In this document: one piece after another, positions 13,220 to 49,657 of the stretch | Layout: each line of letters starts with the position of its first letter | Numbering within the stretch: the stretch's first letter is position 1 | DNA from: Haliotis asinina | Taxonomy: Eukaryota; Mollusca; Gastropoda; Lepetellida; Haliotidae | Direction: 5' to 3' | Assembly: GCF_037392515.1 (NCBI RefSeq) | Contig: NC_090291.1 | Span: 17,263,501-17,327,500, forward strand | DNA: 64,000 nucleotides | Program-made: the position numbers and the translations under genes | Notes under the pieces: generated by a model | Told to the model about the DNA's origin: nothing | Database searches by the model: none | What the model saw: only the letters and a program-made list of their open reading frames with translations

Positions 13220-13347
13220 TCAATCAAACTTTGCCTTAAGTGGCGTTCCATTGTTCTCCACATGGCCGTTGCCTTGTACCAGCTCATGATATGTCTTGAA
13301 CAACTTTGCATACTCAGGTTTTTCTTCTGCATAGGCTTTGAATTCAT
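13220..13347 (-). CDS. LPCAT2: LPCAT coding exon 13 (C-terminus, stop)
   Basis: Acceptor CTATTTGCAG. Encodes DEFKAYAEEKPEYAKLFKTY (first codon shared with exon 12), then a short tail ending PLKAKFD and a TGA at 13222-13220. PEYAKLF-TY matches LPCAT2. The KAKFD end fits a KxKxx dilysine ER-retrieval signal, in line with KKxx-type ends on human LPCAT1 and LPCAT2. Confidence 0.94.
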
Positions 13348-16300
13348 CTGCAAATAGTTTTACCAACATAAGAAATAAATATAAATATTCTTATTGATCT
13401 GAGCATTTATTTACTGATAGTCTAGACAAAACCTATAATGTACACGATGCACACATCAATATTTGGGCTGAGTTATGGTGGCCTGTTGAAAATCTTTCCA
13501 AACCATACAAGACAATGATTAATAATCATACTGTGTTATTATGGATTAGACATACAAACAAATCTTCTCATTCTGTATACATAAAACTAGTGAACAAACA
13601 CAGATTTTAAAGCTGTTGTGACAACCAAATCATATGGAAATAATTCTTGCCAATCAACAAGTTTATTACTTCTCTGATAAAAAGTTCTTTCAGACATATC
13701 TGTAATAATTTTCAGTCCCCAATTCTCCCAAAGAATTTAATGTTATTATGCCTTCAACATTTGAGTAAAACCATAAACCAGATATTCATACAAAGTTTTC
13801 TGAAGTCTGGTGATTCCTAGCAAAAGATCTCTGAACAATCATTTTGTTTGATCATCCAGTATATGTCCTGAGCAAAGTCAATCCATGTTATCATCATAAA
13901 AGCAAATCATCTTAACATATTTTTTGTATGCACACTGTCCGCAAAATCCAACATGTGAAACAGGTCACAGCAAAAATAGATCACCAAAACCTTTCAAGAA
14001 TATTGAGCTATATCTAGACATCTGAACATACTGTTACTTACCAAATGAAATCTTGTCATCTTTGTCACTGTCCACTTTGTCAAACAGCACCTGCACATCC
14101 TGTGTGTTCATCTTAAAGGCATTACACAGGATCTGCGTGAACCCCTCTTTGCTGATGTAACCCTGATTTTCTGTGTCAAATAACTGAAAGCACACAAGAA
14201 TCTTTTCCCTATAATTCATCATTTCCATAGATGATTTAATAGAATAATTTAAATGAAAGACTAACAAACGAACAAAAGACAGGTATTTAGTTGAAAACAG
14301 TTGGAGCCATAGGTTTTCACCAGTTTTCACTTAAGTGAAAAAAAAACAACACCATTGCAAATACCAATCTGAGTCAAATAATTATGAGTGAGCTAGTCTG
14401 ATCTTGTATTCTGGCCCTCTTTTCAGGTGGCTTTTAGACTTGGCACACAGACAGAATAAGCAGATCTTAATTGTCCAGAAGAAATTTTACATCAGTTAGG
14501 ACTTTGGGTTAGTTAGCAGACTGAAATGAGTCAGTTCTTGGATTTATTCTCCCATGAACGACATGGACAACAACAAAAAAAAACCCAAACAAATTACCAA
14601 TATTTACCTGGAATGCAAACTGTATTGTGTCATTTGAGTTTGCCGGTCCAGACACCAACGACAAACCTATCACATACTCCCTGAAATCTATTGTGCCAGA
14701 ATTATCCTGAACAAAAAAAGAAAATACTTGGTTTCAGTACTAACCAAAGGCAAAATGTACATGTTGAACACAAATACAATGTTGAACTAACAATAAAATG
14801 ACTTGAGTTGCCCCAGTACAGGCAACAGTTTGATGACAGGAATGCAATATCACTCACAAGCCTTTTTGTCTTGAACTCATATGAACTCGATTTAGTCAGT
14901 ATAATGAGTGAGTGAGTGATTTTACTCAGCAATATCCTAGCTATTCTAGCAATCTCTAAATAGTTTAATCTGGACCAGACAATCCAGTGATCAACAGCAG
15001 TGGCATCAGTCTACGCAATGTGATAAAATGACGTCAACCAAGTAAGCGAGCCTGATCCTCCGATCTCATTAGTAGCCTCTTACGACAAAGATGAGTTACT
15101 GGAGATCCGTTCTAACCCGGATCTTCATGGTTCTTACCATTCAGTTTGGATTTACAGATCCATTTACATGTGCATTTTGTACTATTCACATATTTATCAT
15201 CAGAAGCCATTTGTAATGATATTAACTATTCAAAACAGGAACAATACTAAAGTCCAATGCCATCATTTCCTGTTTCTTACAAACTGCATATACAATACCA
15301 ATACACTTGACTCATTTAACTCAGGGTTATCCCCCAACTGACAGATACCCATTTGACAGACAGACGATTGACCGACACTGAACAGGAAGGTTAATTTTGA
15401 GTAACACCTCTGTCTAGCGAGTGGAGTAGGATGAACCTGATACGGGTTCGTTACTTAGTAGTAACTTCTTCTCTTCTCAAAATTGTTTTACTATCAAATA
15501 CTATTGAATATAAAAACAGGTTTGCCACTCTGTGGTTTCATTGTCTTTTGACTAAAACATATTTTATTCATTCAAGAAAAGGGTTGGGCACTCTCCCGTT
15601 CATGGAAGTAATGAAAAACCTTCTCACATCCAGAGCTACACTGACATGATGCAGCATTTCTTTTCATATTTATTCAAAACAAATCACATTTAAGTGTGCT
15701 CATCATATATCTTATTCTTGAATGGAAAAAATTTAAATTCCTTGTTCCATATGAATAATTTTTAGTTTCAATATTTTCTTTCATGTAGATATAAGATTTA
15801 AGTAATGCAACAGCAATTTCTAACAACTTATGGAAAATTATTCCACACGTAAACTGTTGGTTGAATAAACCATGATGTTCAGTCTTCAACATGGCTGCCT
15901 AACTTTATTGGAGTTTCTAAACTCATAGCTTGTCTGGTTGCCTATTACAGGTGGGGGTAAATCCTGAAGAAAAACTGGTGTTGTTTGTTTAGTGCCCAAT
16001 CAATTTAGATGTCTTTTTTACAAGAGGGATAAACCCAAACGCTTATGAAAATCAACTGTCTTAAAATTGCAGCAATATCTTTCAAAGTAAATAACATAGC
16101 TTCAGTTTCTTCCTTGTGTTATTATTTGGACTATGCCATTATAATGTGTAGGTAACAGGTAGCAGCTTATCATTTCATTGAACCGTAAATGTTTTTGTTC
16201 TAAGGCGTCAGCGAACTACCTGTCTGCACAATGGTAGGACATTTTATACAGTTCTTGCAACAACCATGGTGTACTGGATACCTATTCTGCCCCTAAATCC

Positions 16301-19300
16301 TTACGGTGTTCTTCCATAGCAGAATCCTTTTTGAAATACTAGGCACAAATAAAACCAACCCTTTGCATAATGTACTTTCACTTACCCTTCTTTTGTGGTT
16401 AAAAAAACACTAGTATAGAAAACAGTGAGAAACAGTATGCAGACTTACCCGATCATACAAAGCAAATACTTCCTCTAAAGCTTGGGACTTGGGCAGGTGT
16501 AAATAACTGGCAAACTCCTCCAAGTTTATCTGACCAGATTTTGCTATTTTGCAGAACTTGTCTAAATATACCTGCATCTGCTTAGAGCTAACTCTGCAAA
16601 AGATCCATTCATGAAATAACAAAGTATACCATAGCTGGTGCAGACTGACACCTCTATTTGGAAGAACAGAACTAAAATCAATTTAAGAAACAAATTTGAC
16701 ATCTTCAGTCTATTTAACAATGAACGACCTGCTTGAATAATGCTTTGACTCTATTAACTAAAATCAGTTTTCAAAAGAGAAATTTCATCTATCACTGCAA
16801 TTGACATGCCCCACTATCAACACAATAAAAGACACTTGAAGGTCACATGCAAATAAAAAACATACATAATTAAAACACAATTATCTCTTATTCATGACAT
16901 ATAATATACATTGCTGATTATGAAAAAAAACCCAAATAAACAAAAGTATAAGCATACACTTGCCAATCAAAAGTGCAATATTTTGTACTTGGGTTTACTT
17001 CCCTTGAAATGAAGCACCCGGGAGACTAAACCCAGTCAGAGCAGTAGGTGTGCATTCAAGTGTAACAAAGAGTTTTCACTGGCTGGTTCATTTGCCGATA
17101 TGCAGAGTGCTCATAGTGTGTATATAGAGATGATCTGTTTGACTGGTATTTTAGAAGTAGGGTGAGTAATAAGAAAGAAAGGTTTTTGATGGATAAAGAT
17201 TTCTTTTCATATATATATGATGCAACATTTCGGTATGGATTTATGGTACCACTTTCATATACCGTTGTCAAGCAAGAGTGATAACAATGTAAGAATCCAT
17301 ACCAAAATGTCGCATCAAATACAATAGAAGACGTTATCCATAAATAGAGTATATAGAAATGTTTGGTTTTGTAAATACAAGGTCTCTGCATTTGCGTTTG
17401 ATCCAATCAACAAATTTGCAAGTTCGCACCAGTTTCCATCCGATCAAGTCATCCAGGGAAAATGGATACATTTTTTTCGCAACCCACAGATACAGAACCC
17501 AGGTGCATGAGCCATAAATCAATGTATTCTATTCTTGGTGTATAGTCTGATAAGAGTTGAAAGTTAAAACTGCAAGAGGTCAATGATTGCATTATTATCA
17601 TCAGCAGAGAGGCAGACACATAGGTGTCAATAAAACAAAAAAAGTATTGAGTTTTGTCTGTGACATATGCTACTAATTAACATCAATATGTTTTTCTTTG
17701 TTTCCATAAACATGAATTAAAACATTTCAGTTTTCAACCTGAGCAATTTTTAACGATGAAATTAATATTTCTCAAGCTACACTTTCTTGAAAACTTGGTT
17801 TGCACATCTGCAAGTATGGGACCAGTGTATTTTTATTATTACAGAACAAGATGCTTGTAATCACAAGAAACATCTTTTGTTTTCCAACTTCGACCACAGC
17901 GATAACACTTGCACCCATAACTTGCTGTTTTTTTCACGAGTTGCTTTCCCCAGTTCAAGCCGTGAGAACCTAATAACTGTGCATGTGCTGTGGGCACAAT
18001 GCAGCACTGCTGTTGAAACCACTTTTTTTCGAGTGGAATCATTGGAACTCAGATTTTGCAGGCTTTTTTTCATCGTGTTATTTTTCACCTTTATATGTTG
18101 AATTTGCATTTCAGATAATTTCTTTCTGTAAGTCCACACCAAAGATATCAGAATCTGCGAAGTTATGTTTTGTGTTGCATGTGACCTTTAATCTAATAAT
18201 CTCATTGCCCAAAGAGGAAACAAGCCAATGTAATATTAAATGAATATATTTAATTCATAGAAATTTCAAGGAAGGTACAAACCCTAGTTTCTGATGAAGT
18301 TTCTGAAATTCTACTAATCCAGCCTCCATGGGCAATTTCAGCCTTGCTGCCCGAACCATCAGACGACAATCATCATATGTGTGGTCTGTTACAGGACAAT
18401 TGAGGTGTCTGAAAAATAAATATAACAAGATTACAAAACAAACATATGTGGAAGGACAAAAAAATTACCTTTCAGTATTCACTGTCAGACATAATAATTT
18501 ATTGCATGCCTAATAAAAAAGAAATAAGAAAATATTCCATATCTCAAACTTCACCCATGCAACGATATTATGTTATGGAAAAATGTCAAGATCCATTATA
18601 GTATGTTGGTCACTTCTCTTTTCACACTGCAATGTGTATATGATGTTATGGTCATGAGAGTACAAATTGTTTGTTTACGTGTTTGCTTACATGTTTTCTT
18701 GCCAATTTGGTCATTTAATATGAGGAGTTTGAGACATAACATCACCAAAAACATTACGACTTACAAATTCAAAGGCATTTTGTATCCTTCAGGACATACA
18801 ATGATGTCTGAGATTAAGGTGTTTATTGAATTTTTGTAATATGCTTGACATAGCATTAACGTGTTCATACAGTTCCTCCCCCTTAAGTAGGTGCTGTAGT
18901 TTCAAAAATACTTAATATCATGGCAAATATCATCAAATATTTTGAAAAAAAATATATACCAACATAGGAAACTGTGTATGTTCAATAAGAAAGCAATGTA
19001 ATGAGAACTGAATATCAGAAATAAAATGAATTGTAAATATGAGTCTAAGATATATATTTTTACATCTAGACACAAGGCACGCCCACATATGCACACATGT
19101 ACAGTCACAACACACCTTAGGATTTTACTGAACTTTACATTTCAAAAGCATTGAGATGTTAAGTTAATCAGGAATCATATAATGCAGTAATCATGTTATG
19201 TCGAGATAAAAATAAGATATGTCCAGTAACTTGTGTAACTGAATGTAATTGAGATTTATGAGTAAGACACTTACTTGGCCATGACTGCTCGAACATTGTT

Positions 19301-22300
19301 GGCAAAGAGTCGAGCATCATTCTTTTCCTCCTCACTAGGATTATATACAGGGAGGAACTGAAACAAAACCAGCAAATTTGGGTACATCTTCCATGAAGAT
19401 GGCACTGTGTTGTGTATGATACATGTCTGTGGATAATAACAACTGATAGATAATTTGTTGTTAATTTGTTATAATAATGAAAGTCATTTGTACTTGATTA
19501 TTATTGATAAAAGACTTGTGTCAATAATAACAATACAACACATTGAAGTGACAGAATCTGAAAAAGTAGTCAGGTGTTAAGCATGTTCTTCCTCTTTGTA
19601 CACAGTTCACAGTAAGACCATACAAATTTGTACATGTTTTTAATCATTCTTAATGAATCAGCACATCTTTAATCTAAAATATGGATATGTGTGTTAGAGG
19701 ATTGAATGTGATTCTTTAAAAGCTAAAGAAATAAATCACAACAATGAATAAGAAAATCAGATCAAAATATGATTAGAAAATTTGATAGATTTTCTATCTT
19801 GTATAGTTAAGCACAAACATATGTTGACAGAAGAATGGCTACTACAAATATCATGGTGCATCTTCAGTACTTACCTCTATTTCTATCTGGTTGTTAAACT
19901 GACAGAATGTGTACCATAGACAAGCAAACCTGAAACATTCAAGAACAACAGAACATAAGAATGACATCAAACATATTTAAGCTATATCTAAGCAACCAAT
20001 TCTTTGTTGTCAATGAACAGTATTCAGTATCAGAGTGTGTCTAATTGATCTTCACTACAAATAGCTGCAAATTTGCTGATGCCGTATAAAGCAACTTAAA
20101 CTCACTGACAATAGCAGGATAAAAGAGTTAAGTTAATTGATGAGTGAGTAAGTTTATTTTAATAACGCGTTAAGCAATATTCCAGCAGTAACAGGGCAGG
20201 GGACACAAGAAAAGGGCTAAACACATAGTACCCATGTGGAGAATCTAACGTAGGTCATTGGCGTGATAAGCAAACACTTGAACCACTAGGCTACCCTTGA
20301 TACAACCCACAAGCACTGGTATAGTGCCGACAAACCTAACAACATATCATGGGATCTTAGGATTCTGGCACAGCAAAGGGAAGGAACTAAACTGTGACCT
20401 TGCCCCTCACATTTTCCTAGTGAAGGGTTGTTCAGTTTGGCATGCTTACAGATGGCTAGGTGAACGTGATAGAGTTGAGAAACACAAACTGATGTCAGGG
20501 TAAACCAAAAAATAGAAGAATAAGTTCTTCCTTTTTAAAACAAATATCCAGCAAACTCATGTACTCACGCTTTTGGACCATCCCATGTCCATGTAAATGT
20601 ATCCTACAGAAAAAGAGAAACATTCTTAGAATAAGGTATGATAACAGCAGATGTTATTGAATTACGGAAAATACCAAACATTCAGCAATGGTGCACTAAT
20701 CATTAATTTATTGGCAGACTAATTATTCACAGTTAAACTGAAAATATTATCCTGTACCATAGCAGGTGTAACTGAACAAATACAGTTGAGTTAGGTGCCT
20801 TACTATCTCAGGAGGTAGATCTGGTCACTAGCTGTGGAGAAGTTGGGCTCTGTCCCATCACCTAACACAAACAATCTGAACAAACAGCAGTGTTTGCTGA
20901 GAGGTTCATAAACCAACACACTTACCAGTTTGTTGAAGTAGCGTAAACATACAGGCTGAACTGGCACACCAGGGTAGAAAGCACCTAAAATATTAAAAAA
21001 TACATGTTTAAAACAAAACAAAAGCTCAATTCATCTAGGAAGTTGGAAATATTTTGAGATTAAATCCTCTTACACCAGATGAGTGACAATGACTAGAAAA
21101 GGTAACAAATGTACAATAGCATTCTACAAGTTCAAGATTGTGCTTTAAGAAATGTCTTGGGGCTTAAAAATTATTGATTGATCTGGTAAAAGAATAAATT
21201 TGAAGGCTTAAATAAGATTTTAATTTTCCATTATTTCCATAAAAATATGCCCTGCCCATTGTGTAGTTGAAGACACATATTTTTCAACTTCCAAATTAAT
21301 AATTGAAGCAAGTTCCAAATTAAGTTTTCAATAACAATTAACAAATTGTAAAAAATGTGTTTTGTTTTGACATTTTTAATATATTCTGTTATCTTTGTAC
21401 CTTTACATCTAAACATATTTGTAGCAAAAGTAAGGAATAACTCTGGAGAGCAATAATTGTGAAAAGGGTTGTGATTTTATCAAATCCAAGTTGTGAAACA
21501 GGACTTATCTCAGCACTTACTATCTAATTTGAGTTTCACCCTTGCAGTCAGTTTTGTGCATCCAGGAATTGGTATGAAGACAAAAAAACTAATATATACT
21601 AGGTCTTTTTCTTTGAATTCAAGGAAACATAACTTAGCCATAATACTGAACAAGTGCAACTGATATTGCAAAATGCAACCTGATAGTATTTTTGCAATCA
21701 CCTTTTCACAAATCTGTTAATGAGTTACATTACAAGGTTTTCTACATCATATTGACCTTTAAACTCAACACACACAACATTTACTGTGCCAGTCACTGTC
21801 AAAAGAGCTATATGGATTGTCTGGATTTTGTCAATGGGGTTGAGATCATTAAAGTGGGGATGCTTGATGATTATGTGTAGATAAACTTGTTTTATAGCAA
21901 TATACCATTATGTCCCATGAAAAGAGACCAGCAGGCTAGGTACTGTAAAGGAGCGTTTTGGTTGAGAGCAGTTTAACACTGCAAGGTTTACCCATATGTA
22001 CTTTTAATCAAGCCTATTTCAGTCAATGGATTTAAAGGAACTTTACTGCTCTTTACCCATGTTAGCTGCCAAATTGAAAAAAAAAGACCTATCTTAATAA
22101 ACTCACTTTCAAATTTGAAAGACTTGACATAACATTGTGCATAAACCTCCACTTTTAATCACACTAAATGTACTGTTACAATCCTGCACTATTAATCATA
22201 TTATGTGTCCTGTTGCAATCAACCAAATGAATTAGCCCTTCTCATAGTATGATGCTGATGACCTTTAACAGGCTCAAAATGTAACAATATTCACTTCGTC

Positions 22301-25300
22301 TAATACCCTCTGCCAACTGAAATTTATTACTACTTGGCCTTCAAAGTTGACAAACAACATCAGCATGTGTTCGTTTTGAATACAGGCATAAAATTCTTTG
22401 TGTTGGTTATATCAACCTTTGTCTAGATACCTCATGAAAACTGATGAGTTAGTCCTTTAAAAATTATTCAGTGGTATTCAACAACAGTTAGGAAATGTTT
22501 TGTGCATGTTGACACGTGTTACAAAAAAAATTATCACTTCAGTTTTACACGTTACAATGATATTTTCTCAGAGAAACATTTTAATTTGACTTCCTGAGTC
22601 TTCTGGTTGCCTACCATTAACTTTCAGCTAACATATGACCAGAGGAATTAGTAATGTTTGGTTTTGGTTTATACCTATGTTCAGCAACTTTAAAGTAACA
22701 TAATCAAATCTGAATTAGACAAGCTTATGACTCACATAATGAATAACAGTTCCATCAGGGATTTATGGCAGGCTATCAACCAAGTCACTTGAAAATAGCA
22801 CAGGTTGATAGGGACCAGTTCCGATCCAGATTCCCCGAGAACCACTTGAGATGTGACAAGTGGTGCCACATTAGATACTGAGGATATCTTTACAAGCCAT
22901 CTGACTGACTCATACAAGGTTATGATAGGCACAGATTTTCTAAGAATAACCAACATCAGCCTTATGAATTTTCACAATCTTCATTAAACCAAGACACCAC
23001 TGACACACTGACACTTACTTGGCTTTGGTGGACGTAGCATAAGATTCAGGTAAAACATACAAATTGTGACAATCATGCCCTGTTACTGTACATGTGAAAT
23101 ACTATGTGCAATCAAGTGTTTAAATATTATCTACTGACACAACAGCACTCAAGCTATTAATCTAGGCCAAGCCTATCATACGATACCCACCATCTACACA
23201 ACTTAAGTATATGCATAATGCGATATAACATAGGCATAATTATATATAATGATGAAGAAGGCCAAAATTGATGTAACAGTCTGTTTCTCATTCAAATGTA
23301 AGAAGGGCCCCAAGGCATATAAACTGCTTTTTCTTCAAAACTGTCCACAAGAAAAAAGGAAAAAGCTTGCCAGTACAGGGACTGGGAAAGAGAACTTTGA
23401 CAATGGTCCATTTTCAGGATTATTAGTAATTTTCTGAATTCAGAATGGGCCACTGTCCTTGAATCAATAGTTAACTTGAAATTTTTAATAGGCTATTTTT
23501 CATTCTAATGTGCAAAATGACCCATGACCCCTTCCTTTCCCAATCCTTCAATGTTGGTAATTGAATCCTGTTAAATGTGCATAGATGTATAATCTACAGA
23601 GTCTACAGTATTCTCACTGTATGAATACCCATCTGACCAATAGGTGGAATGATGTTTTATTATGCAGTCTTTGACATCAACCACTTGCCTGAAGGCCCAG
23701 TCTAGTAAACTTACCTAACAAAACAGACCATACAATAACAGTACAATGTAAAAACTGGGCGAACAGACTCACATCCAATCCTCACCACCTCATGTGTGGT
23801 GTTGTCCCTTAAATTCTAACATTCCAATGCATTTCAACAATCAGTTATGTTTAGGAAGACACTTGATGTTTGTTTAGTAAAGTATCAGTGAAAAAACAAA
23901 GAACAGTTCTAAAAGTAATAGGTAAGTACAAAGGAAGCTGTGTTCACAACTTGCCGAATTGGACAGATACTGGTTTTGACAGCTTCCACTATACAGTAAA
24001 CTGTGAGGATATCAAACTCAAGTCCAATATCAAAGTAATAGTCCAATAAACAGATTTCAACTAAAATATACAACATGCATCAATTTCTTTTGACAATACC
24101 AGTTCATCATATCAGTTTGTTTAATCAGTCTGTTCTTACCTGGTTTAAATGTGATGAGACAAGACCTGTTAGTACAGGTGCCCTCTGGAAAGATAAGGAC
24201 TTGAGGCCATGTTCCCCCGGACTGTCCCCTCTCCCGTATCTGCTGGATGGTAACAGCACGAGAGTTTGGATCCTCTCGTCTCACAAATACAGGCTGCGTG
24301 AACTGAATTAATGCTGACAAAAATAGCATAAAACAAGATTAATTCATGACGACGCACAAAATAAGCAGAATTGTTTCACAAATTATCGGCATTCAAATTT
24401 CATTTCTGGATAATAAACATGGTGATATATCTTGGTAATGAAAAATAAAAAAACAAAAACAAGAAAAGGTGAAAAAGATTCTAATGCTGCTAAGCATAAT
24501 ATACACCAGGATTTCTGTCTAGACCTTGATTGTTTGTGATAATATGACACTAACAACATCACTGGTAATCAGTTAATGCTGCAACATGAAAACTTATTCA
24601 TTATCTTCGGACATATTGTTATGTGTAAATTGAACTGGAATGCAAACTGAGGAATACAACCACTCATCAACATTTCACACATTCATCAACTTCAACACAG
24701 GAAGCACTGCAGAAAGTTAATATGAGTCAGCAAGCCATGAGTCTCCCATGTATTAAAGTGTTTACCCTGATGCAGAAAACCTGTGTATTTGATGCACAAA
24801 TTATCTCAAATATACAGTGAATTTAAAAGTTTGTGTCATTGTTGATGCAATGCTACTGAGCCCTAAGTTCAGATAATCTAAGGTTCAAATTTGCTGTTGT
24901 TTATATCTACTTAGTTTATTGTTACTAAGGTAACTGCTCTGTGCTTATTAAATACCTGACCTGCCTTACGTTTGTTTTTCATCAGTACTAAACAATCACA
25001 GTTAATGTCTTGATGAAAGTTCCATACAAGTAGATGACTCCAGAGAAGCATGACCATGACACCAGGGAGTCCTGACGACCCTAAATTTTCAAGTCTAGGG
25101 CAAACACTGGTAGTATGAAGTCTACTACATCTATCATATATTTCTCTTGACTCTTAAGGCCATGGGCTGAGTTTGTTAAAGAGATCTCTGCTTTACATTT
25201 AAATAAACAATGCGTTTCAGACACTACTAGCAGTCCTTACCATCACATTAATACCAAACTGAATTCTGACTAATATAATTGACATATGGATGCTTTTTGT

Positions 25301-28300
25301 CTCTATCACTTAAGTTGCCCATTTCTTCTTGTAAAGGGAACTATGTATGTACACACATTGAGTACACTACTGAAGCAGATTTTTATATTTATCTTCACAA
25401 CATTTTTATGAAGTCAAATTCAACACTATTCTGTCATAAGGTTTGCAACTACAGTTAGCCTGCTCATCCAAGATACATAAAATTCAGTGAGTGCAGCTGA
25501 TACATACTTAGACCATCACTTTCACTGGTGTAAGAGTTTTGTCACTAGATTTCCAGGGACACATCTGGGTGAGACTTGCAAGGTTTCATCACAGGTTGTT
25601 GAGTCTAGTTTGGTTGACCTCCATGGCCCTTCAGCAATGCCATTACAACTATTTAAGCATAACATTAAGGTCATATGTAATTGAACCCCATTGAACTATG
25701 ATTCTTGTCAGTGAAGCTGACTGGTTAGTAGGAAGTAACATTCTTCAGTATTTAGCCTTATCTCCACTATCTTTCAGTGTTTATAATCAAACTTCATAAC
25801 CAATAACAATGCAAGAGTCCTTATGCATGTTTAGATGTACAGACATGGATAATAACTTTGGCAATTACTAATTATTAATCACAAGTTGGAACATTACATA
25901 ACACAATGGCAAGATAGTGAACAAGTAACATGAACACTGAAGAATGGTACAATCAAGAAAGTTGAGCAACAAGGCAACATGTAACACAACACCACAGCAT
26001 GTAAATACTAACCTGATGGATTTATCACATTTTCTCACACACTTTGTCACTAATCTTTAGAGACCCGTAAAGGTCCCGGGGCCTTCAGCAACCCATGCTT
26101 GCCATAAAAGGCAACTATGCTTGTCGTAAGAGGCGACTAATGGGATTGGGTGGTCAGGCTCACTGACTTGGTTGATACATGTCATCAGTTCCCAATTGCG
26201 CAGATCGATGCTCATGTTGTTGATCGCTGGATTGTCTGGTACAGACTTGATTATTTACAGACCGCCGCCATATAGCTGGAATACTGCTGAGTGTGGCGTA
26301 AAACTGAAGTCATTCACTAATCTTTAGAAATAAATATCACTTGTGCGACCTGACAAAATTGATACTGGGTATTGAAAATGGACATTTTGTTTGAGTTCTA
26401 TTTCTAGAAGAATTATCTGTTGGAGGGGACAACTGAAAAAGAAGATATTAAGGACTCAGAAGAATTTTCAGAATCCTTCTATCTTTTATTATGACTAAAA
26501 TGTGTCAACAGAGACAGCAGGGCAAAAAAAAAAAAAGCCCAAATGTCGTGTAAAAAATAATAAAGCAATACCATGAATGACATCCCTGCTCAGGCCAACA
26601 AACTAAGACTGACATCATTGTTTACTTATCATCCATCGTCTCTGCTCTTAATACTGAAACCATTTCTTTCCCCATATGTTTGTTGGTACATGCCCACAGA
26701 ATGTAGCTTGGGAATGGTAACAGATGTTCTTTAAGTGTGTTGTACTGAGAAACCATTGATTTCAGTCACCATACATCTTCTGACATAAATCAATGAGTCA
26801 AAGGTGAAAATATAAATCCATTCAAGCAGTTTCTACCAAAGATGTGGTGAAGCAAACACACTGTACACAGTGGCATACAAGCAACTACTGCAACATTCAA
26901 GCACATAAAAACAACAGTGGAAAGGCTACGGCATTTTCCCGATCAGGCTTCCCATTGGTTTAGCAAAATCATTGTTCGATCATTGTCTCCTACATGAAGC
27001 AAAGAAATTCCCCAAATCAGTACTGAAAATCAGAGAAATCACTTAGAATTTTGAGATAAAAATTGAGGGCCTTTCATTATTAATGGCTAAAATAATAGGA
27101 AAAATGATTTGGAAAATGCTGAGCCTGTTAATACCTACTTCCCAAAAAAGGTATTGAGCTGCTTTCTATCTTTGCGACTGGACTTTTTAGTTCTTGCCCC
27201 ATAAAACATACAATGGTATCAAAAAATGTTGAATGGGGTGCAGCACAAAGGACAGGTGCGTCCTGGGCACAAGCAGGGTTCCCTCTGAGCTTGATTTTGT
27301 GAAATCCTGCTATAAAGATTACACACCTCCCAAGCCATAGGAGAAGTCCACTGAAAGCCCTATCAAAGGAATAAAACATGCAGTTAACAGCTGTAGCACA
27401 ACTGGGCAGGGTTGCTGTTGCTCCATACATGCTATGAGGATTGGGAAGAAGAGAAGATGGATGATGGGAAATTGGGGAGGACGAAGCAGAGGAATGGTGG
27501 AGGAGCAAGGGAGGGGAAGAAGGGGTGGCACTGGAAGCAGTGTAAGTCAAAGAAGAGAATGTTGGGGATGGGGAAGAGGTTGAGGAGAAGTAGGGGTTGG
27601 CATTGGAGGAGATATATAAGCAGGGATTGGTGGGAAAGGGGAGTGGAAAGGGGAGTGGAAAGGGCAGGAGGAGGAGGCGGCGGTATAGGACACAGAAGGG
27701 ATTGAGAGAAAGGGGTAGTAAAAAGGACAACAGGAGGAGGAGGCTTTGGAGACGTAGAACATGGAAGAGATTGAGGGAAGGGGTAGTGGGAATGGCAGGA
27801 GGAGGAGGATAATGGGGGAAATGGTTAAAGAGCAGGAAGAAAGGCAACTGAAATAAAGAGAAACCAGGGATAGATGCTTGTGCACAATTGTATCAGTAAT
27901 CTTTGACAGTACGCATTGTCCACAGCAAAGGTGGCACATGAAAGTTTTTAGGAATGTGTGCTACCTGATGGCTTACACAAAGCATTTCATGCTGTAATGA
28001 AACAATGAGTGCCATGGCACTACACCGCATCTAGATATGTATCAAGTGTTCATTATGTCAACAAACAAAGCCACTTAAACAATGCTGATGTCTACACTGA
28101 TATTCATATACTTTCGGCATAAACAGCTGGGGCCAAAATCAAAATTAAATCACGATGATAAATATATCTCACTGCCATGAGATCAAAGCAATATAAGATT
28201 AAGCTTCTGGCAAATTTCACAGTAAACAGTTAAAAAGGCCAATGTGCATTATAAGGGATTTAAGACTTGAATGCTAAAATGGGTAAAAAATTATAACATT

Positions 28301-31300
28301 TCTGCTAATAATAAACATTTGTTGAGTTAAAAAAATAATATAATTACATTTTCAACAGTAATGGCCATAATAGTTTTTTTCCACACAGGTTCAAAGAATG
28401 TGATAATGTCTGAATAGTAATAAATCACTATTCTAGCTTTGCTTGATAAGAAAATTTGCCACATATTTAACAGCCTAATGCAGGCTTGTTTGATTTACAC
28501 TACAGACAAGGACAATGTCCAGGTAATGAGGCCTGACATTTTACAAATTAAAGTTCTGAAGAGCAATACAAAGGGCCACATATCACTCCATCTCTGAAAT
28601 GATATATCTGACATTTTTATCATCTGGCAAAGACCAAAGTATCCACTGGATATGAGAGGTCATTCAATTTTTCTGATTTAACTGATAATGATCATAAACA
28701 ACATGAAAACATATTCATGGATAGTGCCTACATCAAGCGCCATGAAATAGCAAAACGCCATGTGTTAAGAACATTAACTATGATGTGTAAAATCTACCCT
28801 TCCAAAACAATTCTTATTATTAATTTTATTCAAGCAATCGGAGTTTCCTGACTTATTCGACAAACACAAACATGATTAAAACTGCACTACTAACAGGGAA
28901 CTTTATAGTCACTCGTACAAATAGCAGGCTTTTGCTTTTCAACAATAACTTCAGTGTGCTATACAAATGTCAGTATGTGTAGCTAGTTGTGGTGTACACA
29001 ATGACATGTTGATATGATTGTATACGGATATGTTGCCACAACAGAAACAGCCTTTGTAATGTGCTTGGTTAGTACACAACACATTGTGTGTTTGTTCAAG
29101 TATAGTATAACAACTTCCTTGGCTGAACACAAAACAGTTGCTTAGACTGTTAAATAAACAGGTTCAGAACATATTCATGACTATGTAAAGTTGCTACTGG
29201 GAAGAAAGCATTTGAGAAGACAAAATACCACAACAATGGCTAATCATGTCATACTTGATCATTTCAGTAGACATGTTGTGACACTAGTAGTTTGATGACA
29301 CTAAGATCACATCATAGATACAATGTGATACTTGGTGTGTCATGACGTAAAGATCACATCATAGATACAATCTGACACTTGGTGTGTGATGACACAAAGA
29401 TCACATCAGAGATGCAATGTGACAGTAGGAATGTGATGACACGAAGATCACATCACAGATGCAATGTGATACTGGGAGCGTGATGACACAAAGGTCACAT
29501 CATAGATACAGTGTGATACTGGCAGTGTAATCCCAAATATAACAATGTTAAAAACATACTTTGATACCAATTTCAATGCTAAAAGGAAGTCCTTTTCAAC
29601 AATAAGACTAGGATGTATCTATAATGATGATAAAGAGAAATTACATGTGGATGATAAGGGAAGCAGATAATCCTATTAATAGGCCAGCCAGAAAATCAAA
29701 CACGCTCCATAATTCTGGTCTCACCAGCTATTCTATATCCACAATCCCATGAGAAGATCAATTAACAAATTACACCAAGTGCCATTGGGGAGATGAAGAG
29801 ATCTCCATCGATCTCATCACACGTGAAATGCTTGGGTTGAACACCAGTCACTGCAGTATTACTGGAAAGCAATCATCCAATGAACATCATTTCCTGTCAT
29901 ATTTAACTTGTATCTAACTGAATTCCACCAAATTACATGTTTATCTACTTACATTATTCTGTCAAATCTGTAAGGCAACATGATTTTGAAGTGAGTGAAG
30001 AAAAATATTTCCATTGCTATGTAGCCGCATTTAATCATCTTTGTGAAGCAAATAACAAGAGGCATCATTTCATTGTGAGTTTCCAAACCATTCAGCTGTG
30101 ATGTGGGAGGGTATATAAATTCCACTGTGAATACAGGGAGGTTCATTGTTGACCCGTGTGTCTGTGCCACATTTTGATAGCTGTCCTTTGGAATCAGAGA
30201 TACATCAAGTCACAAGTTGAGAGTCGTTTCCGATTCAGTTGATTTTGCTTCCTTGTGTCCTTTCCCATCAACATATGCAGGGGCGATTTCATGTCAAACC
30301 ATTGCTAGGAACACTATCTTACTGTCCTTGGAACAGCCAATTTATTTCCATTTTGAATACTGGATAAAAACATTAAATATTTTTTTACACCTTATTGAAA
30401 CCACACTTGCAATCTGATGTCTTCCTTATAGATAAAACAGACAGTCTCACACATCAAAATATTTTGAAAGTATCCATAGGTTCTTTTTGTAGTCAAGCTT
30501 CAAATGAACTGTCAGTAGGATTATTATTATTCTAATGGCTGAAATGTTTAAAGTTGAAATTAAAATTTATTGATCTACTAACATGGATGTAATTATGGAT
30601 AGACGCCTTAAAGTTGATTCTAAATAACAATAGATAATACTTCTAAAATAAATCACATGGAAATATGAGTATTCACATTACTGGGGAAACATACACCAAC
30701 ATGATCAATGTACCTAAAACAAAGTCTGAACTAGTTTAATAATTAAAACATACAAACTTCCGTTTCAGATTTGTTCTCTTTCTAAACATATCATAGTCAT
30801 TTACTGTATCTATATCCCATTGGTTCTAAATTTGGTGTCATAGAGGAAAACAAGAACTTACATAAAACAAGGGTAAGTGCTTATTATTTCGTCTCCAGCA
30901 AAACGACTGATGTGATTCATGCTGTAAGATCTCAGAAAAGTACATATGCCAAGTAGAGACAAGGAGGGCATGGTAGCAGGGAAAATGGGAAGGGGAAACA
31001 GTTCTGGGAGGTGGAATTGGATTCAGTAGAATGGAGGGGATGAGGCAGGTGTGAGGGACACTAGTACCCAGAGTGAGTAAGGGGTATTTGGGAAGCAACA
31101 ACACACTAGCCCATACATCAATACATATAAACAATACATCACAATGTCTTCTTTAGACAAGTCACGTTAAAAATGTATAAATGTTTCTTTGAAACCTTGA
31201 TTCTATGGCATAAAAAACACACATCGTCAAACATTTTGTAAATATATGTCTTTACTGCTAAATAGACAAGGTTATTCATGCATTAATATATACCTGAATT

Positions 31301-34300
31301 AAACCATTAAGTCATGACAATAAAGGCTACAAATACAAAAATAAGAGCTTAAGATAAGTTGTTAATCATCTGGGGCCTACCTTGAGGCAGGAAAAACATA
31401 TTAAAAAAATCACGTAACTGATGAGAAATCATTTTGAACATGTTTAACCACGTCCAAAAATCCAGTACATGAAAATGTGTACATTCAAGGAAGTTGCCAC
31501 CACCATCAGTGAATAGAACAGAAACTACAGTACAAACAAGACCATGCAAAGCTTGGAAGCTAAAAGTGATAAGGACATAATTATGATCATAGCGTCCACT
31601 ATAACTGACCAGCTGTACCTTCAGTTGGTCAAGAGTTTCACAAGTAGAAGTGATCCAAATATAAATCATGTAGGGATAGAATTTAACCAAGGAAGCCTTC
31701 TTGCTTGAACAGAGATAACATGCAGAAATATCCAGAGAATGTTCAAAATTCAACCCACCCTTGGAATACATGATTACTGAAACTGAGTCTGGCATGTGGG
31801 CTGGAGCTAATTTCTATCCCTGGAAATTATCACAAGCCCTTGAACCATCCCTTTCAGATTATATGAATAGGACCTGTAGAAATAGATGAAAGTTTACTGA
31901 AGGTATTTCAAGGAAAAGGCTGTGAACTTATATAAATGCAGTCAAACTTGTATCAACAAGTATGAGTCATGTCTTGTGTACAACAGTGAATAAATGATCA
32001 AACAGGAGTCACAGCCCATGTTATAAAGGTGGATGACAATTTTGGGTTAAACATGGATCTTGATTTTCCTCTACGGTTAAAATAACACTACAAAATCAGT
32101 TTTTCCCATTCATGACTTCATACATGTGCAGTCCTGACTTATTTACCCCCACAAAGCACAATACTTAACTTGTGATGGAGAATCAGACACTGAAAACACT
32201 AAGATGACTATCACACAAATCACAGCAAGGGATAAAAATCTTCATGTGATGTGATGTGATGTGATGTGATGTGATGTGATGTGAGTTTACAATTATGTCT
32301 ATCAGTACCATGCTAGGTCTGTCACAACATAAAATAAATTTCTTTACAGGATACACTATACTGAATGATATACATTCACTGTTCACCTTAAAAAACATTA
32401 TCAGTTTGTTTTGCGTATTTTATTTTCTAACTATAAGAGAATCTGAATCAACATGTGTGGGGCCCAGTTGATTTCATAACGACATACTTGTATTGTCATT
32501 ATCTTCATGTCTTCAGCTAGTCATCTTGAGTGAGAGACTTGCTCAGATATTTGTATTACAATTCAAGGTAACCTCCCAAACTCAATTCTTTAGCCATACC
32601 TTGACAGTAGGTGTTGCATAAGGACACAGTTGTTGCATTAGGTCTAAACATTGTTGCAATAACCAATTTATAAATCTTATTCAGTTGAACATGGCTGGTT
32701 ACATATAACTATGAAAACATTTTTCTCATTACTTAAATTATGCACTGAACAATTTTTGTTTTTTGGCACACAATTTTTTTTCACATAAAAATTATTTTTT
32801 ACAAAATGTTTACAAAAGCTACATGATTTGTAACAAGACGCTCTATGATATCATTTGATATACATGTTCTGGTATTAATAATGCACAAACGTAGTGGTCA
32901 ACCTACTGCAGGCAACCTCTATCATGATTATATTATAATAATGACTGGTGATCAGTATCAGTTTGGAACAGTAGATTCCAACATTAAGCACAAGATCACT
33001 TTGCACCACATAACATATTAATACAATCATTATCTCCAAGACAATACCATTTGATTTAGTACAGAAGGTAAGTTCATAAAGTAACAGCTGTTGGTAAATG
33101 TAATCAAATCCTCTTAGATGAGAGGAAACAACTCTTAGAACTAGAGTAATGCCATCGACTGAATGTAGACTGAATGTAAAATATGTGAGAGTTTCTTTGA
33201 TCCAAGTAACAGGGACTTATTGGGGTTTTTTTTTAAGTAATCGTAGTCATATTCTTCTGGGACCATGGAATCACCATGGGAGACAAGGTTAGCAGTATGC
33301 ATGGGGCACACTTTTGTTGATTTGTAAGAACTGTACTGACATACCTTTAGGTAGGCTCATAAGACTTATCAAAAAGGGGATTTCCATAACAGACTCTGAA
33401 GAAACCCAACTAATACCACATAGGGTTCCTCAAAAGCTACAACAGTCGCAAGACTATGTTAAACGATGGAAGTTACAATCATCTTAATGCTACAACCCCT
33501 TTGAGGAACGGGACTCTTTTTGTATCTAGGAACATACAGTGTGGATTAGTGTTTGTGATTCAAACAAAAACAGAGGTCGACAGGCCTTACAAGGTATAGA
33601 AGCCGTTCAACTATGTCGTATTGGTAAAGATGAACTCTGTCATTCATTGTGGGGCGTCAAGTATTAATTCCGACATCAAGGTCAGAAATCATTCTTTTAT
33701 GCCTGAAAACATCAGTTGCAGACTTTTTATTGGTATCAGGACAAACTGGCAAACGGTAAAGATGATGAATCTTTCATCTCCTGGTTTTGACCATGAAAGA
33801 CATAGGTCAATAACAGACAAGAAATCCTGGTGTGTGTTCTTTAGGATGTCACGCTAAGAGTTCAATTCACAGATGTAATTCTAAGAGTAAAGAGTCAAAA
33901 GAATTAAATTGCAGACAAATGGAAAAACTATTCCGTTCGTCAAAGCTCATAACAGACCGAAAAGCATCAGTTTCTCAAAACATACACTTTCTGAAATTAA
34001 ACACCAAATGAGTTATGGAACTTAACAGTGCTATTATGACACTGCTAATTGGATTATTTTACCACAATGGAATAGGAACATGACAAGGTGAAAATAATCA
34101 CCTGTAATAAAATAATGGGTATCTTGACTTCACAACACGTTAAGGAGTTGATATTAAGGCTCACTGATCACAGCAAAATGTTATTAGATACAGGACATAT
34201 TTTCTGGCGTAAATCAAGTTGAGCTCAAGGTTTCACTTGTTTCTTCCTAGAAAGTAGTTGTTTACATAAACTGCTAGCCCAGAATGAGCTATGGACAAGT

Positions 34301-37300
34301 AAGATATGACCAATGGTGTACACCCTCAAGTATCCACACATTTCAAGGAGTATTGTAATACAATTTTTTTCTTTTGCATTAAAAGAAAAATAGTGAGATG
34401 TTCCTGAAATTTTCCACCTGAACAATACTGGTATGTCTTAATTTAAATCCAAAAAGTATGTCCCCATTAAAGAAGTTAGGAAAGATTCGTACTTCCAAAT
34501 ATTGGAACTTTTTCTGATTCTGCTTTGGCAACAACAGTTGTGAGGTCGAGGAAAACGTCTGTTAATGCGTCGAAATAAGTGGAATGTGGTGCAAGGGCAA
34601 TGATAGGGGCATCTTTGGCAGTGGCACGTTGCCCCCGCACACGGATCCAGTGGAACCCCCCCATGAAGAACACTCCTCGACACAGCACCACAATCAGGGG
34701 TCGCAGCACGCTACAGAGAAATAGCAGGAGATAGAACAGTGTATATTATATAGGCAGTACATCAGAAACAGACCTGTTTTCAGCTCAGTCAGAATGAATA
34801 ACCATTCATGAATAATAATTTTGTGAACTTACTAGAAAGTAAAGAGGTCATTGTCACAGACCTAATGAGTACAGACTTAGATATCTCCGTGTTCAAAAAC
34901 AATGTCAGCAACTCCCAAAATTTCCAGGGTCTCTTAGTTAGGATTCTTCGCAAAGTAATTATTACAATGACAGTTGTAGATTTCTGATGTCTGATGTGAC
35001 CATATTCAGTGACTGACAGGCAAATTGTGAACAAAATCCAGTTTTCACAAGTTTCTACTTTCTCCAGTTTGAACCTAATTTTGAACGTAGCACATAGTGC
35101 AATAAACGCAAAAGAAAACATTTAAATTTCTTTAACTTTTTTGGATCTGCTGTCAATGATACACATGCAACCTCTACAAACCTGCCATCGTCTGCACCTA
35201 TACTGCTACTATGTTATTAATTCCAGTTTAGGAAATTTTACTGACATATGCTGCAGATTTGAAAAAAAAGAAAGGATTTTAGCTGGTTCAAATAAATTGC
35301 TAATAATAAATCAGCCATTGCACCAAATTTCTCCGAAACAGCCCAGGAAAAAGTTGAACTCAAACGGTTTCTTAGCAGCAACATGGTAATTTCTTCTGGT
35401 CCACAACGTTATTAAAGACAAAACTCTGATTGTTTTGTTAACAATGTAAATCAGGTACAGGGAATGTCTACACTGCCTTGATCTAGTCCCTGATGAACCT
35501 CTTTAGATGGTCAACAGTTGTAAGGTCTGGCAATGACCTTCATGCATCTTGTCACAATTGGTCTGTAAGATTGGTTTATAAAAATCTTCTTATGAATGCG
35601 TATGATAACCATTTGGGTAGGACATCTTTTTTACTGATAGTTCATATTAACTGCATACAAATCCTTCAAACATTTCAACTTCTATCCTGACAACATCATA
35701 AACTCAGGTGTTCGCGTCAACGCAGAAACATGCATTTTTCATGCAAAAAAAATAAAACCATGCAAAAAATATTTTGTGCGCATATTTTTAACGCACAGAT
35801 TCTTAACGACATAATCTTTTAAAAAAAGTACCTCAAAACCGCGACATACAGACAAACAATTTCACACGCAAAAGATTTGGACTGCATATTCCTAATTTTT
35901 TTCTGCATGCACTCGTACAAAACCTACCATGATCACTGAAACTGTGAAACAAACTCTATTCCACTATTCTCCACTAACTATTATCTCAAAAGAGACATTT
36001 CCTGAAAGGAACTCCTGGCAAACTCAGTTCCGTTGACTGACATCTAAGTAGTTACTTAAAGCATTGTGTATTAAGCCTCACATTGACCACTTATATACCT
36101 ACACTCAAATATGGCCATAATGAATGGACATTCTGAACAACAGGTCTGTTTGCTGCATTCTCTCTGCTATTATTGTTAGAATATAAGGAATACTGAAATG
36201 TTAACAGCTTTAGGGTTAAACATGTGTCACATAAATAAGGTGCAAAATATACATCATGTCTTGACATCAGTAACTAAAGTAAAACATGTTATGCTCACTA
36301 TATACAATACCATGAACAGTAAACATAATAAACAATTTAGTTTTCAAGTATGGTGAAAACTGAATGGAATCTGACAACCAATGTATCTGACACTATAATT
36401 CAAACCAAATTACATTTTTGGTGATGATATTCACACATTTGAAGCTATGTCTAGAGTTCATGGGCAGAGACTACTTTCAGATATACAGGACAGAACAAAT
36501 TGTTAGCAATCACTTAACAACATTAATTATGCAAATTGTGTGTTGATGAATCATTATCCATTAATTTGGCACTGAAAGTTGATATGAAATGAAATATTCA
36601 GACTCATTTGGCCATTCATAATATTGTGTTTCTGATCTCCATTCTGAGACTCATGGGAGTATGTACAGGAAACATGAATAAATGAAAACGTTAGTCAGAA
36701 TTGCTCGAAAATACAACTGCAAACTTGTCCATTTTAGTATTTTAGTTTGGCCAATATAAATTCAATTCTTTTTATACTTCAAAAAGTGCATGTTATGGGT
36801 AATGTTTGTGGTGCTGTAGTTTCGCCCCTGTATAAGGCAACAGTGTTTAGCTTGTGACCCCTGGAGTAGAGTTACCATTTCATTTTCTAACATACAGCAC
36901 AGGGTTTAAGATGAGAAGGTAAATTCGTTTCTGTACTTTTCTCACATATTATCAATATTCATGTGGAAGAAATAGGCGGGATTTAATATTTTGGGATGGG
37001 CATTATTTAAGACTTGCAAGAGAAGCACAAAATACACAGAGGTGCAGACTCAAGTTTCAAGATTTTTTTTTTCATTTGACAATATAAATTTCCAAATCAA
37101 TGGCTAGATAAAAACAGACAAACATCTTGATTTATATGTATGTTACATTAACTGTTACGATGTAAAGGTCTAGTTTCCCAACTGGTCTGTATTACACTGA
37201 ACTCAGTTGCCATTTCACTGGAGCTCTTGCTATAATTACAACCATGTCCAACATGATTCAATGTAACATTTACTGCATATGGATTTTAGTGTTTGGAATC

Positions 37301-46620: not shown

Positions 46621-46968
46621 TGCTACATATGTCATATTTGGGATTTCACTTTCTTAGTAAAGTACAAATTCTAGTACTTCTTTCGGTTGAGTCCCATCCG
46701 GGATTCGAACCCGCACCCTCAGAGTCAGGCACCTAATCGCCAGCACAAAAAAGTCAGCCGCCTAGCCCGCTCAGCCACAGCGACTGTGGACTCAAGACTG
46801 TGGAAGTCGCGGTGGCTGAGCGGGCTAGGTGGCTGACTTTGTGTGCTGGCGATTAGGTGCCTGACTCTGAGGGTGCGGGTTCGAATCCCGGATGGGACTC
46901 AACCGAAAAAAGTACTAGAATTTGTACTTTACTAAGAAAGTGAAATCCCAAATATGACACATGTTGCA
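46621..46968. repeat. Head-to-head pair of tRNA-Leu-like SINEs forming a 165-bp-arm palindrome
   Basis: Left arm 46621-46785 and right arm 46805-46968 are near-perfect reverse complements around a 19-nt spacer. In the right arm, plus strand, the head reads GTCGCGGTGGCTGAGCGGGC (A-box like), then GTGCGGGTTCGAATCCCGG (B box), then GATGGGACTCAACCG and a common 3' body (AAGTACTAGAATTTGTACTT). Length, A box and variable-arm spacing fit a class II tRNA such as Leu. The acceptor stem has mismatches, so these are SINE heads and not working tRNA genes. The left arm is the same element on the minus strand. Few differences between the arms mean recent origin or gene conversion. Confidence 0.85.
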
Positions 46969-49579: not shown

Positions 49580-49657
49580 AACCATTCAGATAATCTGAAA
49601 GGTGAAAAATAAGCCTCTTTTCTCTGATTCTAAGGCATTTTTGAACACCTTACCAAC

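What the first reader, a model, noticed from the sequence alone, without database searches (positions are those of the whole stretch)
27139..34710. LPCAT has two interchangeable catalytic exons, one LPCAT1-like and one LPCAT2-like
Exons 3A (27139-27359) and 3B (34493-34710) both encode the segment from the second hydrophobic stretch through the catalytic HxxxxD motif. Both have complete splice sites, open frames and the catalytic His and Asp. Their first 47 residues align without a gap. Exon 3B reads LAPHSTYFDA, as in human LPCAT1; 3A reads AAPHSTFFD, as in human LPCAT2 (human wording from memory). One mollusc gene may therefore make two enzymes differing only in the active-site wall, perhaps splitting lysophosphatidylcholine acylation from lyso-PAF acetylation. 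I do not know of a description of this. Whether other invertebrates share it is unknown to me.
Basis: partly seen in the sequence, partly recalled or inferred. Interest (0 to 1): 0.85.

Follow-up and report, generated by a model that had tools for sequence, protein, structure and literature searches.

The report
Two alternative catalytic exons in LPCAT
One animal gene for a membrane-lipid remodelling enzyme carries two intact, interchangeable versions of the exon that holds its catalytic histidine and aspartate, so it can probably make two enzymes with different active-site neighbourhoods; no RNA evidence was available, and what the difference does is still a guess.

Summary
The minus strand carries a complete LPCAT gene of 13 coding positions (503 or 504 aa; acyltransferase plus EF-hands). 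Position 3 exists twice, 7.1 kb apart: 3B (34710-34493) and 3A (27359-27139). The exons share phase, keep the catalytic His and Asp, and align over 70 columns at 46%. Codon-position identities (38/51/23 of 72) show coding constraint; 0 of 4000 neutral simulations gave that pattern. Using both exons or neither breaks the frame. Searches of the 1.14-Gb assembly found the exon only in these two places, and exons 4 and 9 once each: one gene, one exon pair. Best reading: mutually exclusive exons. The proposed split of LPC acylation from lyso-PAF acetylation is not supported, because mammalian LPCAT1 and LPCAT2 both acetylate lyso-PAF. Expression and conservation in other animals could not be tested.

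The parts
46141..46245 (-). LPCAT exon 1 (coding part, ATG)
   Evidence: in-frame stop beginning 18 nt upstream of the ATG; matches recalled human LPCAT1 NPFVH segment
43884..44026 (-). LPCAT exon 2, first hydrophobic stretch, ends ...TGWR + 2 bases
34493..34710 (-). Exon 3B: second hydrophobic stretch, motif I HSTYFD, KAES
   Evidence: weakest donor of the 13 scored (3.28)
27139..27359 (-). Exon 3A: alternative to 3B, motif I HSTFFD, KIES
27443..27842 (-). 400-nt pyrimidine-rich tract (82% C+T) ending 84 nt upstream of exon 3A; candidate splicing control element
   Evidence: most pyrimidine-rich 400-mer of the window on either strand; 0 of 192,020 400-mers in 200 kb of the same genome reach 80% on either strand
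24140..24313 (-). Exon 4, shared: motif II region and motif III FPEGTC
   Evidence: one place found in the genome
20926..20984 (-). Exon 5, motif IV region
20569..20603 (-). Exon 6
19875..19929 (-). Exon 7
19275..19357 (-). Exon 8
18283..18408 (-). Exon 9
   Evidence: one place found in the genome
16449..16593 (-). Exon 10, start of the EF-hand part
14608..14706 (-). Exon 11, EF-hand
14042..14183 (-). Exon 12, EF-hand
13220..13347 (-). Exon 13, C terminus ...LKAKFD and stop
35546..35911 (-). Five TGCATG (Rbfox-type) hexamers in about 370 nt upstream of exon 3B; weak lead
   Evidence: 1 of 500 Markov simulations reaches 5 in 400 nt, but 1 of 40 background strands holds 9

Best explanation
A single LPCAT1/2/4-type gene carries an old tandem duplication of its third coding exon. 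[quoted passage not shown] They are identical except inside a stretch of about 73 residues: the second membrane-associated helix, the first core strand, motif I with its catalytic His and Asp, and the segment just past the lysine thought to line the acceptor site. Shown from sequence: both exons are intact, phase-matched and constrained at the protein level, and no further copy was found; using both or neither breaks the frame. Inferred: each exon is used in some cell type; exclusivity comes from regulated exon choice backed by frameshift and nonsense-mediated decay; the pyrimidine tract upstream of 3A, acting through a PTB- or PCBP-like protein, helps decide when 3A is used. Most likely effect, inferred: a shift in acyl-CoA and lysophospholipid preference or rate, because this segment surrounds the acyl pocket, rather than a clean switch between LPC acylation and PAF synthesis.
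For: Complete gene model with GT-AG introns and open frames for both versions. Both isoforms score above the Pfam acyltransferase cut-off: 65.9 bits (3B) and 59.4 bits (3A) against 23; exon 4 alone already scores 38.4, so exon 3 adds to it in both. Both exons keep 14 of 15 columns invariant in recalled human LPCAT1/2/4, counted where the LPCAT2 fragment overlaps exon 3. Codon-position identity is 38/51/23 of 72, with 0 of 4000 neutral simulations matching. Only two copies of the exon found in the genome; exons 4 and 9 found once each. Both exons included gives a stop 38 nt into 3A; both skipped gives a stop in exon 4. Motif I lines the pocket in PlsC-based models (PMC8753187 passages), and PlsC 5KYM is the only solved relative found.
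Against: No RNA evidence of any kind. No second animal genome to show conservation. No convincing competing-RNA-structure signature: of 8 inverted repeats listed, four straddle 3B and one of these also 3A; in my own stricter count 1 of 5 brackets both exons, which 2 of 100 Markov simulations also gave. The introns are long, so steric exclusion cannot enforce the choice. The donor of 3B is weak (3.28), though exons 1 (3.99) and 9 (3.35) of the same gene are nearly as weak. The functional claim rests on position alone.
Confidence: 0.72

Rival explanations
1. Both exons are used, but the difference is regulatory or positional (tissue-specific control, membrane or lipid-droplet binding, stability) and not a change of substrate preference.
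For: The swapped part includes the second hydrophobic helix; the N-terminal two-helix motif of PlsC anchors that enzyme in one leaflet (PMC8753187 passage). The catalytic residues are the same and each exon keeps 14 of 15 invariant columns.
Against: Residues near the catalytic His (L/A three before it, Y/F three after it) and most of the loop after the Asp also change, which would be odd if only anchoring mattered.
Confidence: 0.25
2. One reading: 3B makes an LPC acylating enzyme and 3A a lyso-PAF acetylating enzyme.
For: 3A shares AAPHSTFFD and APV with recalled LPCAT2. PAF synthesis is reported in marine invertebrates (PMC5741692 passage).
Against: LPCAT1 and LPCAT2 both acetylate lyso-PAF (PMC4076079 abstract; PMC4280512 passage). 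Recalled LPCAT4 has the same AAPHSTFFD, and the PMC8753187 passage on LPCAT4 lists long-chain acyl-CoA donors only. The proposed lyso-PAF phosphate reader, Arg166, is Lys in both exons.
Confidence: 0.08
3. Only one exon is used; the other is a relic or a rarely used poison exon.
For: No RNA data exist here. The 3B donor is weak. Tandem exon copies can decay.
Against: Both copies kept frame, splice sites and catalytic residues through divergence to 46% identity. Neutral point-mutation decay from 3B to that level keeps an open frame in 676 of 4000 simulations and in none gives the observed codon-position pattern.
Confidence: 0.1
4. 3A is an alternative first exon: a promoter in the 3B-3A intron makes an enzyme lacking exons 1 and 2.
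For: A 254-codon open frame with in-frame ATGs runs through the pyrimidine tract into 3A.
Against: The open frame is expected from the pyrimidine-rich make-up, since stop codons need purines. The 3A acceptor and its phase with exon 2 are intact.
Confidence: 0.05
5. Two genes or an assembly artefact: one exon belongs to a second, partly collapsed LPCAT gene.
For: None found; 46% identity would suit paralogues.
Against: Exons 4 and 9 were each found once in the assembly. tblastn with recalled human LPCAT1/2/4 shows no credible second copy of any other exon in the window (a few chance hits at E 0.45 and above lie outside the gene model's exons).
Confidence: 0.02

Closest known systems
LPCAT1 / LPCAT2 / LPCAT4 (LPLAT8-10), EF-hand AGPAT-family lysophospholipid acyltransferases of mammals
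   Same: Same domain order (helices, PlsC-type acyltransferase with HX4D and FPEGTC, EF-hands); exon 4 is 66%, 67% and 52% identical to recalled human LPCAT1, LPCAT2 and LPCAT4.
   Different: Mammals use separate genes for their variants. Here one gene has two alternative exons for the catalytic segment. Of three mouse LPCAT2 splice variants, two lack motif III; no swap of motif I is mentioned in the passage seen (PMC4280512).
Mutually exclusive tandem-duplicated exons in enzymes (OGDH exons 4a/4b; KHK, PKM and CYP4F3 from memory)
   Same: Alternative exons replacing one segment of an otherwise identical enzyme. For OGDH only the start of the abstract of PMC7969005 was seen, in a listing.
   Different: None of these is a glycerolipid acyltransferase. 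In OGDH, distant branch points enforce the choice (same listing); here the 3A and 3B acceptors have ordinary AG-free stretches of 29 and 61 nt.
Thermotoga maritima PlsC (5KYM)
   Same: Only solved relative found with the catalytic region of the 3B isoform at E up to 10; alignment runs from before motif I past motif IV (E 1.7e-8). The organism name is from PMC8753187.
   Different: Bacterial, 247 residues in the solved chain, so no EF-hand half; no alternative exon.

Membership tests
LPCAT1/2/4-type (EF-hand AGPAT family) | Acyltransferase domain with HX4D and EGTC motifs | tested here: met
   PF01553 65.9 and 59.4 bits, cut-off 23; PHSTYFD or PHSTFFD and FPEGTC present
LPCAT1/2/4-type (EF-hand AGPAT family) | C-terminal EF-hands | tested here: met
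   EF-hand_7 73.2 bits, EF-hand_1 64.1 bits with three stretches
LPCAT1/2/4-type (EF-hand AGPAT family) | Acyl or acetyl transfer to lysophosphatidylcholine or lyso-PAF | not testable with these tools
   needs an enzyme assay
Mutually exclusive tandem-duplicated exons | Neighbouring homologous exons of equal phase with intact splice sites | tested here: met
Mutually exclusive tandem-duplicated exons | Both-in and both-out products out of frame | tested here: met
   stop 38 nt into 3A, or stop in exon 4
Mutually exclusive tandem-duplicated exons | Transcripts containing one and only one of the pair | not testable with these tools
   no RNA data on hand
Mutually exclusive tandem-duplicated exons | Competing RNA structures or steric hindrance (common mechanisms) | tested here: inconclusive
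   8 inverted repeats in 24.1-43.9 kb, four straddling 3B and one of these also 3A; a stricter count gives 1 of 5 bracketing both exons, reached by 2 of 100 simulations; 3B-3A intron of 7133 nt speaks against steric hindrance; no second genome for conservation
3A as LPCAT2 type, 3B as LPCAT1 type | Exon groups with the named human paralogue in a tree | tested here: inconclusive
   74 columns, 11 rows (3 human rows recalled, 6 of the 12 bacterial loci used): 3A+LPCAT2+LPCAT4 p-AU 0.51, 3A+3B p-AU 0.32, 3B+LPCAT1 46/81
3A as LPCAT2 type, 3B as LPCAT1 type | 3A has LPCAT2's Arg166 (proposed lyso-PAF phosphate contact) | tested here: not met
   Lys in 3A and 3B, Lys in LPCAT1, Arg in LPCAT2 and LPCAT4 (role from PMC8753187; human letters recalled)

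The most novel reading that the evidence does not exclude
The exon pair is ancestral to bilaterians: one early animal LPCAT gene made both catalytic types by alternative splicing, and vertebrate gene duplication later gave each type its own gene (3B-like to LPCAT1, 3A-like to LPCAT2 and LPCAT4), each losing the other exon. The evidence does not exclude this: 3A and 3B are as far from each other (46%) as each is from the recalled human paralogues (37-47%); three columns beside the catalytic His (I/V, L/A, Y/F) split both sets the same way, one splits the other way; the tree does not reject it (p-AU 0.51).
Probability: 0.12. Interest if true: 0.8.

Novelty: new variant of a known kind. Interest (0 to 1): 0.5.

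Why it matters
Swapping the exon that holds the catalytic motif of an otherwise constant enzyme is a natural domain-swap experiment. Two isoforms differing in about 40 residues would show which residues around HX4D set the acyl-donor and acceptor choice in LPCATs, a question so far approached by mutagenesis and PlsC-based modelling (as cited in PMC8753187). If other animals share the pair, it would also show alternative splicing doing the job that vertebrates gave to separate genes.

Tried and rejected
Search for relatives outside this genome: genome contigs with a two-isoform alignment gave none (36 stretches; the tool picked poorly conserved peptides); with an alignment that included recalled human rows, 12 of 60 stretches encode relatives, all 12 in records titled as bacteria and read here as ordinary PlsC-type proteins; six of the 12 served as outgroup. 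Viral contigs gave none twice (42 and 4 stretches). No animal genome other than the window's own was available, so conservation is untested.

Rejected: chance; second LPCAT gene; decayed exon; steric exclusion (intron of 7133 nt); exclusivity by a distant branch point (ordinary AG-free stretches of 29 and 61 nt). Competing RNA structures: not shown and not excluded; one search was run while checking this report and replaced a flatter denial in my draft. In one search the region as a whole holds more inverted repeats than simulations (5, against a mean of 0.29, 0 of 100 reaching it); four of the 5 do not straddle either exon. Rfam found nothing at its gathering scores. A PDB search with exon 3B alone found nothing. 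The TGCATG cluster is kept only as a weak lead, because one of 40 background strands has a denser one and 28 of 3662 hexamers cluster this much in the gene. The tree on exon 3 is too short to resolve.

Literature: ten full-text searches. In their listings, five of which showed only part of the hits (20 of 23, 15 of 34, 15 of 43, 8 of 39, 15 of 391), I saw no paper on duplicated or mutually exclusive exons in an LPCAT gene; titles and starts of abstracts only were seen there. Passages were seen in PMC8753187, PMC4280512, PMC9741552, PMC4013061, PMC5741692 and PMC9013439, and the abstract, start of the introduction and outline of PMC4076079. The library lacks most subscription journals, so absence is weak evidence.
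Full report
What is there. The minus strand of the window holds a complete gene of the LPCAT1/2/4 type. I rebuilt it exon by exon: 13 coding positions from 46245 (ATG, in-frame stop beginning 18 nt upstream) to 13220 (end of the stop codon), with GT donors and AG acceptors at every intron. The product has 503 aa with exon 3B and 504 aa with exon 3A. Pfam finds the acyltransferase domain (65.9 and 59.4 bits, cut-off 23) and EF-hands. Recalled human LPCAT1, LPCAT2 and LPCAT4 match along the gene, exon 4 at 66%, 67% and 52%. The recalled sequences agree with published motif positions, and with the published LPCAT1 length, but remain recalled.

The two exons. 3B is 34710-34493 (218 nt) and 3A is 27359-27139 (221 nt). 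Both follow a proper acceptor, end in GAA|gta, start in the same phase and end in the same phase. Exon 2 to either, and either to exon 4, stays in frame. With both, a stop appears 38 nt into 3A; with neither, in exon 4. That is the usual arithmetic of mutually exclusive exons, though equal-phase duplicates give it for free whenever the length is not a multiple of three.

Not chance, not a relic, not a second gene. The exons are 46% identical (32 of 70 columns, E 2e-20), and each finds only the other in the 1.14-Gb assembly at E up to 1 (the tool scores only its best first-look candidates). Identity by codon position is 38, 51 and 23 of 72: second positions conserved, third positions near chance. 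Of 4000 neutral point-mutation simulations from 3B to the same protein identity, 676 kept an open frame and none gave that pattern. Both exons keep 14 of the 15 columns invariant in recalled human LPCAT1/2/4, counted where the LPCAT2 fragment overlaps exon 3, including the catalytic His and Asp. Exons 4 and 9 were each found once in the genome, so there is no sign of a sister gene that could own one of the exons. 3A and 3B are about as far from each other as either is from the human paralogues (46% against 37-47%), so the duplication is old or both copies evolve fast.

LPCAT1-like and LPCAT2-like? Only in part. Of 15 columns where recalled LPCAT2 and LPCAT4 agree against LPCAT1, 3A matches LPCAT2/4 at 6 and LPCAT1 at 3; 3B matches LPCAT2/4 at 4 and LPCAT1 at 5. 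Both exons have K.ES, as in LPCAT1, where LPCAT2 and LPCAT4 have R.EN. The tree on 74 columns resolves nothing. By BLAST, recalled LPCAT2 scores 3A at 44.7 and 3B at 43.5 bits; LPCAT1 and LPCAT4 both prefer 3B (66.2 against 51.2, and 65.5 against 58.2).

What it does. Published models built on bacterial PlsC put motifs 1 to 3 around a cavity for acyl-CoA and lysophospholipid, with N-terminal helices in one membrane leaflet (PMC8753187 passages). Exon 3 supplies the second hydrophobic helix, motif I and the segment just past the lysine that takes the place of LPCAT2 Arg166, proposed to read the lyso-PAF phosphate. Motifs II and III and Arg195 sit in shared exon 4. Swapping exon 3 therefore changes the wall of the cavity and one likely anchoring helix but not the catalytic pair. 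I infer tuned donor or acceptor preference as most likely, a regulatory or membrane effect as second. A clean LPC-versus-PAF split is unlikely: both LPCAT1 and LPCAT2 acetylate lyso-PAF (PMC4076079 abstract; PMC4280512 passage), and the Arg166 position does not differ between the exons.

How the choice may be made. The introns are 9173 nt (2-3B), 7133 nt (3B-3A) and 2825 nt (3A-4), too long for steric exclusion. Acceptors of 3B and 3A have ordinary AG-free stretches of 61 and 29 nt. Donors score 3.28 (3B) and 5.68 (3A) against 8.8-11.6 for seven of the other exons, while exons 1 (3.99), 9 (3.35), 6 (5.89) and 2 (6.3) are also low (recalled frequencies). Inverted repeats give no clear answer: four of the 8 listed straddle 3B and one of these also 3A; one pair of 20 nt bracketing both exons is reached by chance in 2 of 100 simulations, and it is not the one-site-many-selectors design of known cases (recalled). 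The strongest lead is a 400-nt tract of 82% pyrimidine at 27443-27842, ending 84 nt upstream of 3A. It is the most pyrimidine-rich 400-mer of the window on either strand (next best 62%), and none of 192,020 400-mers in 20 stretches of 10 kb from the same genome reaches 80% (highest 72%). It holds 10 TCTT and 12 CCCC, which suits PTB- or PCBP-type regulators but follows from its composition. That is a lead, not a demonstration. A cluster of five TGCATG upstream of 3B is weaker.

Novelty. Mutually exclusive duplicated exons are a known and mostly ancient kind of event; a study of 236 human tandem-duplicated exon substitutions has no occurrence of acyltransferase, LPCAT or AGPAT in its main text (PMC9741552, term search). 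My ten literature searches listed no report of such exons in an LPCAT gene; listings were partly cut and the library is incomplete. I rate it a new variant of a known kind. What is missing is RNA evidence and a second animal genome; neither was available here.

Noticed in passing
27443-27842 (-): 400-nt, 82% pyrimidine tract directly upstream of exon 3A, unmatched in 200 kb of sampled genome; possible splicing control element.
   Followed up: partly
35546-35911 (-): Five TGCATG hexamers in about 370 nt in the intron before exon 3B, and one TGCATG at 27382, just upstream of 3A.
   Followed up: partly
26766-26785 and 37323-37342: A 20-nt, 90% complementary inverted repeat that brackets both alternative exons; 2 of 100 simulations give one as well.
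   Followed up: partly
about 46640-46960: tRNA-like element in intron 1 with an inverted second copy next to it, by eye; ARAGORN calls one arm (46806-46900, +) a tRNA-Thr. Probably a tRNA-derived mobile element.
   Followed up: no
49634-50638 (+): Single-exon protein kinase open frame of 334 codons that looks like casein kinase 1 (by recall; Pfam gives a protein kinase domain), head to head with the LPCAT gene; perhaps a retrogene.
   Followed up: partly
29277-29528: 47-bp tandem repeat, 5.4 copies, inside the 3B-3A intron.
   Followed up: no
27128-27892 (-): 254-codon open frame running from the pyrimidine tract in frame into exon 3A; its openness is expected from the base make-up.
   Followed up: partly
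13223-13240 (-): The protein ends LKAKFD, which fits a KxKxx ER-retrieval signal (motif recalled).
   Followed up: no
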